Assembly: GCA_035527835.1 (NCBI GenBank)
Contig: DATKZS010000230.1
Coordinates: 1 to 10,077, forward strand
From: DATKZS01 sp035527835 [NCBI: bacterium]
GTDB lineage: Bacteria > RBG-13-61-14
Direction of reading: 5' to 3'
DNA length: 10,077 nucleotides
Part shown: in pieces, positions 2,576 to 8,598 of the stretch
Numbering within the stretch: the stretch's first letter is position 1
Layout of the letters: every line of letters begins with the position of its first letter
The notes under the pieces: model-generated
What the model was told of the DNA's origin: nothing
The model's database searches: none
What the model saw: only the letters and a program-made list of their open reading frames with translations
Position numbers and translations under genes: made by a program

Positions 2576-4036
2576 GAGGGTGTCCGGTAATTCAGCGCCG
2601 CTTGGGAGGGCCTAATGGCATCTCAAGTTGGCGCAGTGATTGCCGATCAACCTCCTTGTACCGCCGTCCGTGATGTGATCGGAACTCGGCGGTAAGCATC
2701 AATATGTTACATGCATCGGCGAGGTATGACAAGGTGCGGGCCAACTCCAGGCTGTTTATGAAGAAGCCGCTCAAGTTGAATCGGTTCTTGTCGGCTTCAA
2801 AGCCGGCTTCCACCAGGGGCCGGATTCGAGCGAGCAGTTGTTTTGCCAGGCGGCTGTGGAGGGGGATCATTCCGAGGAAGGTTTCATGGTCATCGGGAGG
2901 AAACCGGAATTCTTTTTGGCATTGGTTTTTCTCCGGACAGATCATACAGATGTCTCCTCGCGAAGGAGGATGATAGAGGTGGCTTTTTTCATGGCCGACA
3001 TAATGTTCCCGGATCAGTCTTTGTCCTTGAGGGCAAGATGGGCATCCGTCTTTTTCGCATTCTTCGGGAGCGAGCATATTGCTTCTGGCCCTGGTCAACA
3101 CCGCCACCCCATATTGAATCCGCAATTGCTTTTTAATCTCCTGGTCAATGTATCCCATATCGGCTGCCACGATGTCCGGCAAAAAGTTCAATCAGCTCTG
3201 GGCCGCTTCCCGCAAGGGTTTAAGCAGACCGCCGTCGGAGAGGTTGGCCGGTTCGGTGCGGGTTATCATCGGCACGTTTCGCCATTTACCATGAAGACGA
3301 AAGATCAATCGCAGGGTGTGCTTCTTATATCCCACGAAGAATTCGGATTGCCCCGACTTCTTCGAGCGGCGGCCTTTAGCAGCACTTTTGGCGGTGTACT
3401 CGCGTTGGCATTTACATCTTTTTCGACAGGAGCATTTTTTTTGCCGCGGCCGGAACACGAGGCCTTAAGGTCGGTGGAGTCGGGCACGGCCACCGCCACT
3501 TCGGGCAGGGGAATAATGGAGAAGAGTCTTTCCAGGAGCAGGTCGTTGATCAGCGCAAAAGCCTCGGGCCCGATCTCGGAGCGAAAATCGGAGAGGGTCT
3601 TGGACTTGGGGACCTTGGCGATGGATTTAATCTGACAGAAGCGACGATAACCCTGATAATAGAGCGGCTCGGAGCACAGTCGGTTGAAGGAAGTGATTCC
3701 CTTGATAAGGGCCAAAAGATGAATTCGATAATATTGGGAGGTGGTGAGGGCGAAAGGTTTGCCCAGTTTGCCCGGATAGTTTGAGGGGAAAAACTCGTTA
3801 ATCGAGGCATCCGGAATCACCTGTGAAATGCGGTCCAGTTCGGGATCGGGTGAGTAACGAGGTCGTGACATGTTCTCCTCCTTCCAACTTTGAGTAATCA
3901 TTATCATTTCGAGGAAAAATGTCCACGGAAATTTAGGTTGGAGCCATGATTTTGAGGGTGGCCGAAGTGATGTAGTTTTAATTTGGGTGTTTTTATAAGG
4001 ATTCCAAGCGATTATGGAACATTGTTGAACACCCTC
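2576..4036 (-). mobile_element. Degenerate insertion sequence (IS1182-like DDE type), about 1.46 kb
   Basis: The ends carry inverted GAGGGTGT (2576-2583 and 4029-4036), extending imperfectly inward as GAGGGTGTyCrryAAT. Inside is one broken transposase gene occupying most of the length. No convincing target duplication is visible: flanks ending TTTAA and starting TATAA do not match. The element is less GC-rich than its neighbours, in line with foreign origin. The 160 nt between the right end and the transposase start hold no other gene. The IS family is assigned from the look of the transposase and has not been checked by search. Confidence 0.8.
2592..3871 (-). pseudogene. DDE transposase with -1 frameshift and in-frame stop
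   Basis: The start is MSRPRYSPDPELDRIS at 3871, with a strong GGAAGGAGG site; an upstream ATG at 3907 in the same frame lacks one. The N-terminal part contains the first catalytic-type aspartates (AVPDSTDLKA). The frame then changes by -1 at a run of eight A (3436-3443). The new frame continues KKSGQSEFFVGYKKHTLRLIF, is interrupted by TGA at 3192-3194, and goes on in the same frame with LNFLPDIVAADMGYID (second D). It then has a Cys-rich insert (CPSCPQGQ, CMICPEKNQC) and VEAGFEADKNRFNL, where the catalytic E is expected. The read-through length of about 426 codons fits the family. The A8 run could be a programmed frameshift, but the TGA would still cut the protein before the second catalytic residue. 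Confidence 0.85.
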
Positions 4037-4687: not shown

Positions 4688-5485
4688 TTACTCCCGGGGC
4701 GATAAATTCTCGACCAGCTCGAAGCCCAATCCGCAAACCTCCCCGGGAAACCGCCGCGGATCGAAGAATGAGAGCAAAGGCTCGCCGCGACGCGAAAAGA
4801 ATTTTGGGGTCATCTCGAACACACCTATATCTTCGGGGGCCAGGAGTTCCTTCGGGATCAGGTAGTCAAAAACGATTTCGGAGCCCGGCCGGGCAAAACC
4901 TGCCAGCGAGCCAAGGGTCCCGAAGACCGCTTCCCGGCTGAGGTAAGGCACGGTGCCCATCCAGGAGAAGAAGGCCGGCTTCTCGCGGGAGTAAGTGGAT
5001 CCGGCCAAGGCCTCGGCCAGGGTCTCCTTTTCAAAGTCGCAGGGAATGAATTCGAGGGTTTCCGGTTCCGCCAACTTTTTTGTGGCCAGCAGCTCGCGCT
5101 TTGCCGCCTGGGTGGCGGGATGGTCCACCTCAAAGACCTTGACCGCGGCGGCCCAATCCGGCCGGCGCCAGGCAAAGGTGTCCAGGCCCGCGCCCTGGAT
5201 GACGTACTGGCCGATCCCGGCCGCGACCGCTTTTTCCAGCTGGTCTTCGGCCCAGCGAGCACGGGTCAGATATTGAGCAAAACCCCGTTTGCGCCATCGC
5301 TAGAGAATATCGCGGGCAAATCGGAAAACCATCCGATTTTTGCTGCTGAGGCGATATAACGGATGGGTAATCAGGTCGCCGGCCAAGGGGTCCTCGAACA
5401 CCTTGGGAGACTCATCAAACGCAAAATGCGCCGCGCGAACTGCGGCGATGATTTCCGCGGTCTTGCTCCCCTGATTCCGCTGCAT
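4688..5485 (-). pseudogene. SAM-dependent methyltransferase (TIGR00027/leucine carboxyl methyltransferase-like), interrupted by one TAG
   Basis: Proteins of this class use S-adenosylmethionine to methylate carboxyl or other small acceptors; the substrate here is unknown. Residues 1-60 (MQRNQGSKTAEIIAAVRAAH, then FEDPLAGDLI) show the usual N-terminus. After an in-frame TAG at 5300-5302 the same frame continues with QYLTRARWAEDQLEKAV, the SAM-binding segment YVIQGAGLDTFAWRRPDW, FEVDHPATQAAKRE, and the acidic D-F after IPCDF. With the stop ignored it is 265 codons, near normal length. The start at 5485 has GGGGGAG before it and lies 36 nt after epmA, so it was the last gene of that unit. The only visible lesion is the single stop. 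The downstream part has no start that would keep the SAM loop except by reinitiation at a non-ATG codon. Confidence 0.85.
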
Positions 5486-5521
5486 GATTGCTCCCCCTAT
5501 TTCCAAGGTTGCATGGCTGGC

Positions 5522-6466
5522 TCATTCCGCGAACCCGAACGCCTGCACTTGTTCGATCCGGCCGGCGCCCGCGGCGATCATGGCGAGCCGGTCCACTCCG
5601 AGGGCCACCCCGGCGCACGGCGGCAGGCCCAGGGAATCGAGGTCATGGAGGAAGGCCTCGGGCAGGGGAAAGACTTTTTTGCCTCGCCGGCGGCGGAGCT
5701 CCTGCTCGGCTTGGAACCGTAGGCGGTGCTCGGCCGGGTCGGTGAGCTCGGTGCAGCCGTTGGCTATCTCCACTCCCGCGATGATCAGCTCGAAGCGCTC
5801 CGCGGTGAACGGATCGTCGTCCTTCATTTTGCCAAGCAGAGCGGCGGGCGCCGGGAAGTCGGTGAGAAAGACCGCGCCTTTCCCGGCCAGCCACGGCTCC
5901 ACGCGCGCCACAAAGGCGTCGTGGAAGCGGTCAAGCCACTCGCCGGGCCCGGTCCCGCGCCACGGCCCCGGGTCCACGCCCGCCTCCTTCATCGCCTCTG
6001 CCACGCTGACGCGCGGAAGCGGGGGCGTGAGATGGATATCTTTACCGCCGACGGTCACCCGGTCTCCCAGCGTCTGGGCGATCACCGCCTCCACTTCCTG
6101 CATCAACTCGCGGTAGGTCCAGCCGGCGCGGTACCACTCGGCCATGGTGAACTCCGGCGAGTGGAGCGGCCCGCTCTCGCCCTGCCGGAACACCGGGCCG
6201 ATCTGATAGATGGCGCCGAGGCCGCGGCAGAGCAGGCGCTTCATGGCGAACTCCGGCGAGGTATGCAGATACATTTCCCGGCCCGGCGGGTCGGGCTCCA
6301 TGAGCGGCGCGTAGGGGGCGATGATCGGCTCGATCTCGGGGTCGGGACCCGGCGCGGGTTGCAGGACGGGAGTTACTGCCTCCTGGTAGCCCCGGTTTTG
6401 CAGGGCGGCGCGGAGCCGGGACTGGAGTTGCATGCGGAGGATGAAGGAGGGGGCGGCCCGGGTCAC
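5522..6466 (-). CDS. epmA: EF-P lysine ligase EpmA (GenX/PoxA, LysRS-like)
   Basis: Paralog of the class II lysyl-tRNA synthetase catalytic domain that, in E. coli, attaches (R)-beta-lysine to a lysine of elongation factor P; the anticodon-binding domain is absent. Motif 2 is YQIGPVFRQGESGPLHSPEF, with R94 and E97. The amino-acid/ATP pocket segment is IIAGVEIANGCTEL (228-241), and motif 3 is GVALGVDRL (286-294). I chose the GTG at 6466: it overlaps the upstream TGA as GTGA and has GGGAAGGGGA just before it, whereas an ATG at 6484 has no ribosome site. This gives 314 residues, close to the E. coli protein (325). No efp or epmB is in the window, so the substrate is inferred from the family. Its coupling to an ImmA/XRE pair is unusual. 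Confidence 0.93.
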   Translation of the reverse strand: MTRAAPSFILRMQLQSRLRAALQNRGYQEAVTPVLQPAPGPDPEIEPIIAPYAPLMEPDPPGREMYLHTSPEFAMKRLLCRGLGAIYQIGPVFRQGESGPLHSPEFTMAEWYRAGWTYRELMQEVEAVIAQTLGDRVTVGGKDIHLTPPLPRVSVAEAMKEAGVDPGPWRGTGPGEWLDRFHDAFVARVEPWLAGKGAVFLTDFPAPAALLGKMKDDDPFTAERFELIIAGVEIANGCTELTDPAEHRLRFQAEQELRRRRGKKVFPLPEAFLHDLDSLGLPPCAGVALGVDRLAMIAAGAGRIEQVQAFGFAE

Positions 6467-7005
6467 AAAAATTCCCCTTCCCATTCGCGCAGGCGGGTGA
6501 GGTCATTGAGCCGGGATTTCATGGTTGCCCGGGTAACGCCGAAGACATCGGAGAGTCTCGCGATTTCCTTCTGGCACTCCGGCTCGGAGCTGCGGCCCAT
6601 GTCCGCGGCCAGGCGGTTGAGCACGGGCAGGGGCATGAGGAGCTCGGAGGAAAAATAATCGGCTTCCCACTCGCGGAGAATTCCGGCGGGCGGCTTGAAG
6701 AGGCTGAAGGCCGCGCTGACCTTGCACTGGAACTCCTCGTCCTCGTGGAGGAAGCCGTGTCCGATTTCATGCCCGATGGCGAAGCGGTTGGTGCTGGGCT
6801 TCGATCCCGTCCGGTACCTTACGATCCGGACGGGACCCTTGATGAGGATTTCGCCGTTGAACCCGCGGGGCAAGTCCGCGGGCTGCAGGTCGTAGGCCGG
6901 GAAGGCGGCGCAGAAGTCGAGCAGCGAGAATGGCGGATCCCGGAAACCGACCCGATTATGGATATAGGTTACGAGAGCGATGATCTCATTTTCTCGATCC
7001 GGCAT
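6463..7005 (-). CDS. ImmA/IrrE-family metallopeptidase
   Basis: Zinc protease-like protein (PF06114 type, 180 residues). The family includes ImmA of ICEBs1 and IrrE of Deinococcus, which cleave a cognate XRE repressor to induce genes. The metal site is FAIGHEIGHGFLHE (residues 75-88), giving H79, E80 and H83, with the third ligand in REWEADYFSSELLMP (probably E114). The C-terminal LSDVFGVTRATMKSRLNDL is the usual family helix pair. The protein is soluble, with no signal peptide. It starts inside the last codons of the upstream XRE gene (20-nt overlap) and its stop overlaps the epmA start by 4 nt. This is the classical regulator-protease order, so the neighbouring repressor is the likely target. 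GAGG 10 nt upstream may be the ribosome site. Confidence 0.93.
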   Translation of the reverse strand: MPDRENEIIALVTYIHNRVGFRDPPFSLLDFCAAFPAYDLQPADLPRGFNGEILIKGPVRIVRYRTGSKPSTNRFAIGHEIGHGFLHEDEEFQCKVSAAFSLFKPPAGILREWEADYFSSELLMPLPVLNRLAADMGRSSEPECQKEIARLSDVFGVTRATMKSRLNDLTRLREWEGEFL

Positions 7006-7438
7006 TCTCTTCGAACCTCAGATAACGGTGGTAATCGAGCACCCTCCGCATCTGCTTGCGGTCCTGGAAGAGATCCTTCATCATCTCGGCGAATTCGTCG
7101 GACTCGGGCAGGTGTGTGTCGCGGATGTAGCCCGCGGCCACCTCGATCAGGTCATCCCGGGTCATGTGCCGCGTGGTCTTGGCGCCGGCGCGCTTGACCT
7201 CGGCCCCGGAGGCGCGGGTTGACATCAGCTCCTGGCCCGTGAGCAGCCACTCGATGCTGGTGCCCGAGAACTGCGCGATGCGGAGCAGGACCTTGGGAGA
7301 AGGCGTCTCCTTGTCCGCCTCGTAGCGGCTGATCATGGCCTGCTTGATCCGCAGGATGTCCGCGAACTCCGACTGGGTCATCTCTCCCCGCAGCGACCGA
7401 ATCCTCTCTCCTAGTGTCTTCTCTTCTTTCTTTTTCAT
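6986..7438 (-). CDS. XRE-family transcriptional regulator
   Basis: A 150-residue DNA-binding protein. Residues 8-67 form a Cro/C1-type helix-turn-helix (LGERIRSLRGEMTQSEFADI, then IKQAMISRYEADKETPSP and SGTSIEWLLTG), with the recognition helix near KQAMISRYE. Residues 91-145 are predicted helical and highly charged, and could dimerise or present the site cut by the protease. There is no LexA-like S24 peptidase domain, so inactivation would need the neighbouring ImmA-like protein. The frame is open further upstream to 7546, but the ATG at 7438 follows AGGAAAGAGGAA and fits the family start. It is the first gene of the unit, behind a strong promoter and a 180-nt leader with a palindrome, which suggests autoregulation. 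Confidence 0.92.
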   Translation of the reverse strand: MKKKEEKTLGERIRSLRGEMTQSEFADILRIKQAMISRYEADKETPSPKVLLRIAQFSGTSIEWLLTGQELMSTRASGAEVKRAGAKTTRHMTRDDLIEVAAGYIRDTHLPESDEFAEMMKDLFQDRKQMRRVLDYHRYLRFEENAGSRK

Positions 7439-7496
7439 TTCCTCTTTCCTATGTCCTCGTTTGAATGTTAATGTTTTGTCCGGACTGGGGGGCGGC

Positions 7497-7518
7497 GTAT
7501 CCTGTATCCTTGAAGGAT
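7497..7518. promoter_or_regulatory. Candidate operator: direct repeat plus palindrome in the XRE gene leader
   Basis: GTATCCT occurs twice back to back (7497-7503, 7504-7510). The second copy merges into the 13-bp palindrome ATCCTTGAAGGAT (7506-7518), about 80 nt upstream of the XRE start codon. Paired half sites of this size suit an XRE repressor dimer. The location is downstream of the presumed transcription start, so it would act as a roadblock or serve a second, unseen promoter. Confidence 0.4.
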
Positions 7519-7626
7519 TTAAATCTGGCTCGCGCCCGGACCACAATTGCCCTGCTGGATCGTCTTTTTTTTATCCCATGCCGAAATATAACAAAAAGTC
7601 GGCGCAAATGCAAAGCAAGGCGGTAT

Positions 7627-7654
7627 AGTATAAGATGATGCCCCTGCTTGTCAA
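7627..7654 (-). promoter_or_regulatory. Near-consensus sigma70 promoter for the XRE-ImmA-EpmA unit
   Basis: The minus strand shows a perfect -35, TTGACA (7654-7649), a 16-nt spacer, and TATACT (7632-7627), one mismatch from consensus. The expected start is near 7620, giving a leader of about 180 nt before the XRE ATG at 7438. The promoter lies 21 nt after the stop of the upstream hypothetical gene, so the regulator unit is transcribed on its own. Confidence 0.7.
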
Positions 7655-7674: not shown

Positions 7675-8598
7675 TCATGAAAGCCGCAAGCCGTCCTCCA
7701 CGTAGCTCCGTCCCTTGCTCGAAAGCTTGTAGCGCGCCGTCCCGCCCTTGTCCTGGCTCAGGATGAATCCGGACCGCGTGGCGTGATTGATCACCTGCTC
7801 GATGTTGATCCCGGGGTCCTGGCCCACGGCGCGGTAGCAGCGGTTGATCTCGGCGATGGTGAAGTCCGACCCGCCGCCTTCCTGCTCCATGTAATATCCG
7901 AACACCATGATGCGGTCATGGTGGGTGCGCGGCTTCTTGGCCTCAATGACGCGCACCAGCTCTTCAGCCATGATCCGCGGCGTGCGCCGACGCAGGAGGA
8001 ATTCCGGCCCGGCGAAGGTCTCCGGCCCGGGCGGGCCCTGGTCCGGGCCAATCGCTAAGCTCTTCCCCGCGGCCGTTTCCTCGAACGGCAGCTCGGGGGC
8101 GCCCGCTCCGGCGGCGATTTCGTGCATGGTCTCCCGGGCCTGTTCTTCGGCCACTTCGGGAGGCAACGGCGCGGGATGCTCTTCCCGTTCCTCGTACTCC
8201 CGCGACAGCGGGAAATCGCCCCCGCCCACATCACGGGCCGATGCCTCCTTGCGCGGCTGGTTGTCGCGCCGCCGGCGCTCCCAGCGGCCGCCCCGTCCCC
8301 TCCGCTCGCCCTGGGCGCGCTGGTCCGGGCCGCGTTCGGCCTGCCCGCGCTGGTCCGGGCCGCGTTCGGCCGGAGCACGCTGCGCCTCCGGCGGGCGCGG
8401 CTCCTTAGCCGCCGGCGCCGGTCCGTTTTCCGGCCGGAGAGGCTTCTTGTCCTCCCGCTCGCTGTTCAACATGTCGTGCTCGATCTTCTTGAGCACGTGG
8501 AAGATATAAGGCTCATACTTCGCAAGCTGTATGTCCACAAAGCCCGGGTCTCCGCCCAGCGCGATCTCGAACCACTTGCACGAAAACTTGAATTCCAT
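7675..8598 (-). CDS. Hypothetical protein: disordered linker with C-terminal winged-helix-like domain
   Basis: A 307-residue protein that I do not recognise as a named family. Residues 1-43 (MEFKFSCKWFEIALGGDPGF, continuing to HVLKKIEHD) look like a small folded alpha/beta unit. Residues 48-205 are low complexity, rich in Arg, Pro, Glu, Gly and Ala and surely disordered, with a tandem decapeptide AERGPDQR(G/A)Q at 77-96 and an Arg-rich patch RGRGGRWERRRR (101-112). Residues 222-305 resemble a winged helix: HHDRIMVFGYYMEQEG, FTIAEINRCYRAV, INIEQVINHATRSGFILSQD, then a wing ARYKLSSKGRSYVEDG. The C-terminus could bind DNA and the Arg patch nucleic acid; this is inference. The ATG at 8598 has GGGGGA before it. 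The gene stands alone between cysM and the XRE unit. Confidence 0.8.
   Translation of the reverse strand: MEFKFSCKWFEIALGGDPGFVDIQLAKYEPYIFHVLKKIEHDMLNSEREDKKPLRPENGPAPAAKEPRPPEAQRAPAERGPDQRGQAERGPDQRAQGERRGRGGRWERRRRDNQPRKEASARDVGGGDFPLSREYEEREEHPAPLPPEVAEEQARETMHEIAAGAGAPELPFEETAAGKSLAIGPDQGPPGPETFAGPEFLLRRRTPRIMAEELVRVIEAKKPRTHHDRIMVFGYYMEQEGGGSDFTIAEINRCYRAVGQDPGINIEQVINHATRSGFILSQDKGGTARYKLSSKGRSYVEDGLRLS
8311..8370 (-). repeat. Two 30-bp tandem repeats inside the hypothetical gene
   Basis: Two copies of a 30-bp unit (8311-8340, 8341-8370) differ only where GGGC in the first is CCCG-like in the second, about 28 of 30 identical. They encode the decapeptide AERGPDQR(G/A)Q. The near identity at DNA level points to a recent duplication, and copy number may vary between strains. 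Confidence 0.85.

What the first reader, a model, noticed from the sequence alone, without database searches (positions are those of the whole stretch)
5522..7654. EF-P modifying enzyme coupled to an XRE repressor and ImmA/IrrE protease
A strong promoter drives XRE, then ImmA-like (20-nt overlap), then epmA (GTGA overlap), then a methyltransferase. XRE/ImmA pairs normally control mobile elements or DNA-damage regulons by repressor cleavage. Here the coupled output is EpmA, which alters translation at polyproline stalls. This suggests stress-triggered control of EF-P modification, or an EpmA paralog recruited to another target. I know of no described system of this form.
Basis: partly seen in the sequence, partly recalled or inferred. 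Interest (0 to 1): 0.68.

Follow-up and report, generated by a model that had tools for sequence, protein, structure and literature searches.

The report
Repressor-protease pair beside EF-P ligase
In a little-known group of uncultured bacteria, the gene for the enzyme that activates translation factor EF-P sits right behind the gene of a repressor-cutting type of protease, in two of three cases also behind a repressor gene, so EF-P activation may be switched by stress; the link has not been tested at the bench.

Summary
On the minus strand XRE (7438-6986), ImmA/M78 protease (7005-6463) and EpmA (6484-5522) overlap as one unit behind a near-consensus promoter. The order is not unique to this genome. 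The window's organism falls with a phylum of which three genomes are held. One (G006) has XRE-ImmA-EpmA at 49/56/51% identity and shares no other gene with the window in 20 kb. A second (G001) has ImmA-EpmA overlapping by 20 nt but no XRE beside it. In the third (G005) the epmA frame runs off the contig start. Of 80 epmA loci, only G001's has an M78 gene in the stretch held; 41 have efp within 1 kb. In the three relatives this is the only EpmA-sized match; efp (with a Lys loop) and a KamA/EpmB-type gene lie on other contigs. A 13-base motif upstream of XRE is shared by window and G006 and occurs once in G006's 4.7 Mb, a good operator candidate. Best reading: an ImmR-ImmA / CapH-CapP / DdrO-IrrE-like module whose output is EF-P modification. 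Cleavage, signal and control of epmA are inferred, and G001 shows XRE can be missing. The downstream methyltransferase has an in-frame stop and is not part of the unit. New variant of a known kind.

The parts
6986..7438 (-). XRE-family repressor, 150 aa, HTH plus about 80-residue C-terminal region
   Evidence: PF01381 41.5 bits on the longer reading 7546-6986; start at 7438 chosen by alignment with G006
6463..7005 (-). ImmA-like M78 zinc protease, 180 aa, HEIGH and EWEAD motifs kept
   Evidence: PF06114 50.1 bits; conserved in G006 and G001; PADLOC capP E 3.5e-20
5522..6484 (-). EpmA/GenX-type EF-P ligase, 320 aa from ATG at 6484 (GTG at 6466 possible)
   Evidence: TIGR00462 E 2.2e-83, 280.2 bits, just under cut-off 286.9; PDB 3g1z E 1.3e-44 over residues 10-316
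7627..7654 (-). sigma-70-type promoter TTGACA-16-TATACT
   Evidence: 11 of 12 consensus positions
7497..7509 (-). candidate operator GGATACAGGATAC, 59-71 nt before the XRE start
   Evidence: same 13-mer upstream of XRE in G006, once in that genome; shared word of 13 or more in 2 of 2000 shuffled pairs

Best explanation
A self-regulated operon. XRE binds GGATAC-type sites upstream of itself and holds the operon down. ImmA, when activated, cuts XRE and raises XRE-ImmA-EpmA expression. More EpmA increases the share of EF-P carrying (beta-)lysine and so the capacity to translate Pro-Pro motifs. Shown here: gene order, overlap, conservation with changed flanks, a shared upstream motif, and one EpmA-sized match plus Lys-type EF-P in the three relatives. 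Inferred: repression, cleavage, the signal (DNA damage / ssDNA by analogy), and that EpmA level limits EF-P modification.
For: Same three genes in the same order in G006, XRE 49%, ImmA 56%, EpmA 51% identity, with no other gene shared in the compared stretches. ImmA-EpmA overlapping by 20 nt in G001. An M78 HMM finds M78 in 1 of 80 epmA loci, that of G001. PF06114 at E 1e-6 in 23 of 80 genomes; the only one in G006 is beside epmA. Shared 13-mer upstream of XRE; G006 also has a 14-bp perfect palindrome there. One efp over cut-off in each of three relatives, loop PGKG; KamA/EpmB-type genes of 319-357 aa open frame, below the EpmB cut-off. HExxH and EAD motifs invariant in the three ImmA proteins.
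Against: G001 has no XRE beside ImmA; ImmA there works without a neighbouring repressor or on one elsewhere (an XRE paralogue exists at G001:C621). The motif is inverted relative to XRE between window and G006, and in the window it lies about 120 nt downstream of the best promoter's -10. In G006 the consensus scan found no promoter on XRE's own strand, only one on the opposite strand. The unit is known from one small clade only: the ImmA profile rang in 0 of 29 other epmA-bearing genomes at E 1e-6 and in 1 of 377 genomes of the Myxococcota locus's phylum, where no EpmA or XRE relative lies in the 12 kb around it. No expression or cleavage data.
Confidence: 0.5

Rival explanations
1. XRE-ImmA is a self-contained pair (toxin-antitoxin-like or old mobile-element remnant) that settled upstream of a housekeeping epmA; epmA is simply carried on its transcript and is not meaningfully switched.
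For: XRE/M78 pairs control mobile elements; a TA database calls the TnSmu1 pair a putative TA module, though tests in that paper did not support it (PMC10233336, passages). XRE matches phage repressor families. EpmA itself looks ordinary.
Against: Retained in two lineages at about 50% identity while the compared flanking genes changed. ImmA-EpmA overlap kept in G001 without XRE. None of 488 viral-contig pattern matches encodes a relative of this ImmA; plasmids and phages gave one weak record each (E 6e-9 and 2e-6, about 70% of the query).
Confidence: 0.27
2. The core pair is ImmA-EpmA: the protease acts on a repressor encoded elsewhere, or on a translation or stress protein, and XRE is an optional local regulator.
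For: G001 keeps ImmA-EpmA without XRE. XRE paralogues matching almost the whole XRE profile lie elsewhere in G001, G005 and G006.
Against: XRE is adjacent in the window and G006. I recall no M78 protease that cuts an EF-P pathway protein (not searched for as such).
Confidence: 0.13
3. This EpmA has been recruited to a target other than EF-P.
For: TIGR00462 score is slightly under cut-off in window, G001 and G005. G001 and G005 have Ser where 67 of 83 compared rows have Ala in motif 3. The KamA-type genes are under the EpmB cut-off.
Against: One EpmA-sized match, Lys-loop EF-P and a KamA/EpmB-type gene in each of the three relatives; window and G006 keep the common Ala; the rows group with EpmA rows of Bdellovibrionota and Myxococcota.
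Confidence: 0.05
4. Chance neighbours inherited from a common ancestor, without function.
For: Three genomes only, all from one clade.
Against: AtpB of window and G006 is only 60% identical, so the ancestor is not recent; flanks differ; reading frames and catalytic motifs are kept.
Confidence: 0.05

Closest known systems
CapH-CapP controller of CBASS and other immune operons
   Same: XRE repressor plus M78 protease upstream of an output gene; ImmA's best PADLOC family is capP (E 3.5e-20) and its best PDB match is CapP 7t5t (E 3.5e-4). CapP, activated by ssDNA, cuts CapH (PMC13373217 and PMC10904395, passages).
   Different: Output is EpmA, not an immune operon. ImmA is 180 aa and its match ends at capP position 154 of 242. 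EpmA and the upstream ORF have no PADLOC family; the window's other proteins were not scanned with PADLOC.
ImmR-ImmA of ICEBs1 / TnSmu1
   Same: Two-gene XRE-M78 layout; cleavage of the repressor releases the target genes (PMC10233336, passages). Similar short protease (length recalled).
   Different: By eye no conjugation or integrase gene in the window ORFs or the part of G006 listed; output is a translation-factor ligase.
DdrO-IrrE/PprI of Deinococcus
   Same: M78 protease cuts an XRE repressor on DNA damage (PMC10904395, start of abstract and passages).
   Different: DdrO controls a regulon of genes with a shared motif (PMC5552922, start of abstract); here the exact 13-mer occurs once in G006.
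efp-epmA-epmB clusters
   Same: Same enzyme family and pathway.
   Different: Of 200 genomes with yjeA and yjeK, 31% have the three genes in an operon, 60% have two clustered, 9% show no clustering (PMC2821294, passages). Here epmA is clustered with a regulator pair, and in the relatives efp and the epmB-like gene lie on other contigs.

Membership tests
EpmA (EF-P lysine aminoacylase) | TIGR00462 equivalog score over curated cut-off | tested here: not met
   280.2 bits against 286.9 in the window; G006 homologue 314.6, over it; G001 283.7 and G005 285.3, under it. A near miss.
EpmA (EF-P lysine aminoacylase) | LysRS-like catalytic core without anticodon-binding domain, collinear with solved EpmA structures | tested here: met
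   PF00152 over residues 13-317 of 320; 3g1z, 3a5z, 3a5y best PDB hits from residue 10 to 316-317; titled putative lysyl-tRNA synthetase, that they are EpmA is recalled.
EpmA (EF-P lysine aminoacylase) | Ala instead of LysRS Gly in motif 3 (GVALGVDR) | tested here: met
   Ala in 67, Ser in 10, Gly in 6 of 83 rows (Gly: the one LysRS row and 5 Gemmatimonadota rows grouping with it); window Ala. The link to beta-lysine choice is recalled; the paper search for it found nothing.
EpmA (EF-P lysine aminoacylase) | lysylates EF-P | not testable with these tools
   needs enzyme assay
ImmA/IrrE (M78) protease | M78 domain with HExxH and downstream Glu | tested here: met
   PF06114 50.1 bits, cut-off 22; HEIGH and EWEAD aligned with other M78 proteins
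XRE repressor cleaved by M78 protease | adjacent HTH_3 repressor | tested here: met
   window and G006; absent beside ImmA in G001
XRE repressor cleaved by M78 protease | repressor is cut and its operon derepressed | not testable with these tools
   needs purified proteins or reporter
CapH-CapP | full-length CapP architecture and linked immune operon | tested here: not met
   match ends at capP position 154/242; EpmA and the upstream ORF have no PADLOC family
ImmR-ImmA of ICEs | carried on a conjugative element | tested here: inconclusive
   no such gene seen in the window ORFs by eye or in the proteins scanned; a transposase fragment at 3907-3305; wider context not held

The most novel reading that the evidence does not exclude
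A stress-gated switch of EF-P modification: in this candidate phylum the EF-P ligase is under a cleavable-repressor circuit, so cells retune Pro-Pro translation after DNA damage or phage attack, a translation-factor modification run by an ImmA/IrrE-type protease.
Probability: 0.3. Interest if true: 0.75.

Novelty: new variant of a known kind. Interest (0 to 1): 0.52.

Why it matters
EF-P modification is usually treated as constitutive housekeeping (recalled). A repressor-protease pair built into the epmA unit would make it conditional and would extend XRE-M78 controllers from mobile elements, DNA repair and immunity to translation. It also gives a clear test system: one operon, one motif, one readout (modified share of EF-P).

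Tried and rejected
Invariant Pro-Pro in ImmA (residues 24-25) as a built-in EF-P sensor: dropped. Pro-Pro also occurs near that place in two other M78 proteins of the 32-row comparison (L103, L119), and 63 of the window's 180 ImmA residues are invariant in the three proteins anyway.

Structure: AlphaFold models of XRE (single sequence) and ImmA (two rows) were poor, mean pLDDT 42.3 and 44.5; no fold search was run on them.

Spread outside the clade: ImmA profile over 29 genomes holding epmA relatives, 0 of 29 at E 1e-6; over 377 genomes of the phylum of the Myxococcota locus L001, 1 of 377 at E 1e-12. Around that one match neither the window's EpmA nor its XRE has a tblastn hit in 12 kb. A search meant for the phylum of the Oligoflexia locus L012 also examined 377 genomes, listed the same handles and the same single hit, so it added little or nothing. 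No centre in Desulfobacterota was at hand, so that group is untested.

Viral contigs: 488 pattern matches, none a relative. Plasmids and phages: one weak record each.

Full report
What is there. Three minus-strand genes overlap: XRE (7438-6986), ImmA-like M78 protease (7005-6463) and EpmA (6484-5522). Families: HTH_3 41.5 bits (on the longer reading from 7546), Peptidase_M78 50.1 bits, tRNA-synt_2 146.1 bits, all over their Pfam cut-offs. TIGR00462 EpmA gives 280.2 bits, slightly under its cut-off of 286.9. EpmA aligns over almost its whole length with entries 3g1z, 3a5z and 3a5y, titled putative lysyl-tRNA synthetase, which I recall to be EpmA. A promoter TTGACA-16-TATACT lies 189-216 nt before the XRE start. 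The next gene downstream, an LCM-type methyltransferase, has an in-frame TAG at 5302-5300.

Where it comes from. No whole genome is held for the window. A scan for EpmA relatives kept 80 of 116 loci, the first-ranked 42% identical. One, L002 from a sediment MAG titled delta proteobacterium (G001), has an ImmA relative directly before epmA. The phylum of G001 has three held genomes: G001, G005, G006. The window's AtpB is closest to G006 (60%), then G005 (49%), G001 (47%) and the Myxococcales genome G002 (43%), of 13 genomes asked, 9 with a match. So the window most likely belongs to that small group; its name was not determined.

Conservation. G006 has XRE 11552-11106, ImmA 11060-10500, EpmA 10496-9498 in L083, identity 49, 56 and 51%. 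Comparing ORFs of 90 aa or more, window and G006's 20 kb share only these three genes; the other matches are opposite strands or other frames of the same stretch. Window and G001's 11.7 kb share only ImmA and EpmA. G001's ImmA and EpmA overlap by 20 nt; the ORF before ImmA looks like a membrane protein by eye, not an XRE. In G005 the epmA frame runs off the contig start, so nothing can be said about its upstream gene; PF06114 was not found in G005 at E 1e-6.

Controls. An HMM from 32 M78 rows (one a repeat of G006) was run on the ORFs of the 80 epmA loci, which hold up to 10 kb on either side but are often shorter (four are under 6 kb; four have under 700 nt upstream of the match). It found M78 only in L002. 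Of four loci added as positive controls all rang, but three (L083, L105, L117) are of proteins in the model; only L101 (E 4.6e-12) is independent of it. Some of the 80 are not EpmA: five Gemmatimonadota rows group with LysRS and carry its Gly. Efp lies within 1 kb of the epmA match in 41 of 80. PF06114 was found at E 1e-6 in 23 of 80 genomes searched (77 of the 79 other locus genomes plus G001, G005, G006); G006 has one such gene, the one beside epmA, and G001 two, one beside epmA. A tree of 83 rows (L036 dropped for a stop in its span) puts window, G006, G001 and G005 together with the Oligoflexia fragment L012 at 98/92 support; the four alone are not one clade. L012 begins at a contig end, so its upstream gene is unknown.

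Pathway in the relatives. Each of the three has one efp over cut-off with the loop PGKG, one EpmA-sized match (only G006's over cut-off; the other rows are longer frames of 434-624 aa) and a best KamA/EpmB-type match of 319-357 aa open frame, under the EpmB cut-off, with weaker second matches. They lie on contigs other than epmA's. In the 2010 survey 9% of 200 genomes with yjeA and yjeK had no clustering among efp, yjeA and yjeK (PMC2821294, passages), so lack of clustering alone is not unusual.

Operator candidate. The longest word shared by the 236 nt upstream of XRE in window and G006 is 13 nt, GGATACAGGATAC / GTATCCTGTATCC; shuffled pairs reached 13 or more in 2 of 2000. It occurs once in G006 and not in G001 or G005, and exactly once in the window. 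It is inverted relative to XRE between the two genomes. G006 has three GGATAC half-sites within 46 nt before XRE, of nine in 20 kb, and a 14-bp perfect palindrome between the hexamers of a promoter-like site facing a divergent SNase gene; no promoter-like site was found there on XRE's own strand. The pattern fits a repressor binding its own control region, but no binding has been shown.

Function. ImmA's nearest named relative in the libraries used is CapP (PADLOC E 3.5e-20, PDB 7t5t E 3.5e-4). CapP is activated by ssDNA and cuts CapH (PMC13373217, PMC10904395, passages); ImmA cuts ImmR in ICEBs1, and IrrE cuts DdrO (PMC10233336, passages). By analogy the pair would be a cleavable-repressor switch. 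The new part is the output, EpmA. The strongest result against a simple switch is G001, where XRE is missing beside ImmA; XRE paralogues matching nearly the whole profile sit elsewhere in G001, G005 and G006 and could be partners.

Print. Searches for EpmA with ImmA (1 paper, on magnesium borides), EpmA with IrrE (none), and combinations of elongation factor P, ImmA, IrrE, XRE family, COG2856, yjeA, genX (20 of 46 and 10 of 30 papers listed) showed no paper joining the two by title, term counts or start of abstract. The library lacks most subscription journals and all preprints.

Verdict. A real, conserved, clade-limited gene unit; mechanism plausible and untested.

Noticed in passing
window 4688-5506 (-): LCM/TIGR00027-type methyltransferase interrupted by one in-frame TAG at 5302-5300: pseudogene, sequencing error or recoding; not followed.
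   Followed up: partly
window 7675-8598 (-): 307-aa protein with a charged low-complexity middle; no family in Pfam, NCBIfam, PADLOC or PHROGs.
   Followed up: partly
window 2592-3907 (-): Transposase of the DUF772/IS1182 type, apparently broken: 3907-3305 matches the family, the ORFs at 3458-3192 and 3191-2592 have no Pfam match but look like its continuation by eye.
   Followed up: no
G001:C621 1911-2342, G005:C361 7881-8324, G006:C123 13312-13734: A second XRE matching nearly the whole XRE profile, with no ImmA seen beside it, in all three relatives; in G001 and G005 next to START-like and CapA-like ORFs (names by eye).
   Followed up: partly
G001 and G006: The EpmA model rang on a 495-aa LysRS-like frame in G005 but on no such frame in G001 or G006; they may use class I LysRS or the MAGs may be incomplete.
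   Followed up: no
L083 11560-11612: In G006 a GGATAC-containing palindrome lies between the hexamers of a promoter-like site facing a divergent SNase gene, which XRE might also control.
   Followed up: partly
L051, L074, L076, L079, L080: Gemmatimonadota rows brought in as EpmA relatives group with LysRS and carry its motif-3 Gly.
   Followed up: partly
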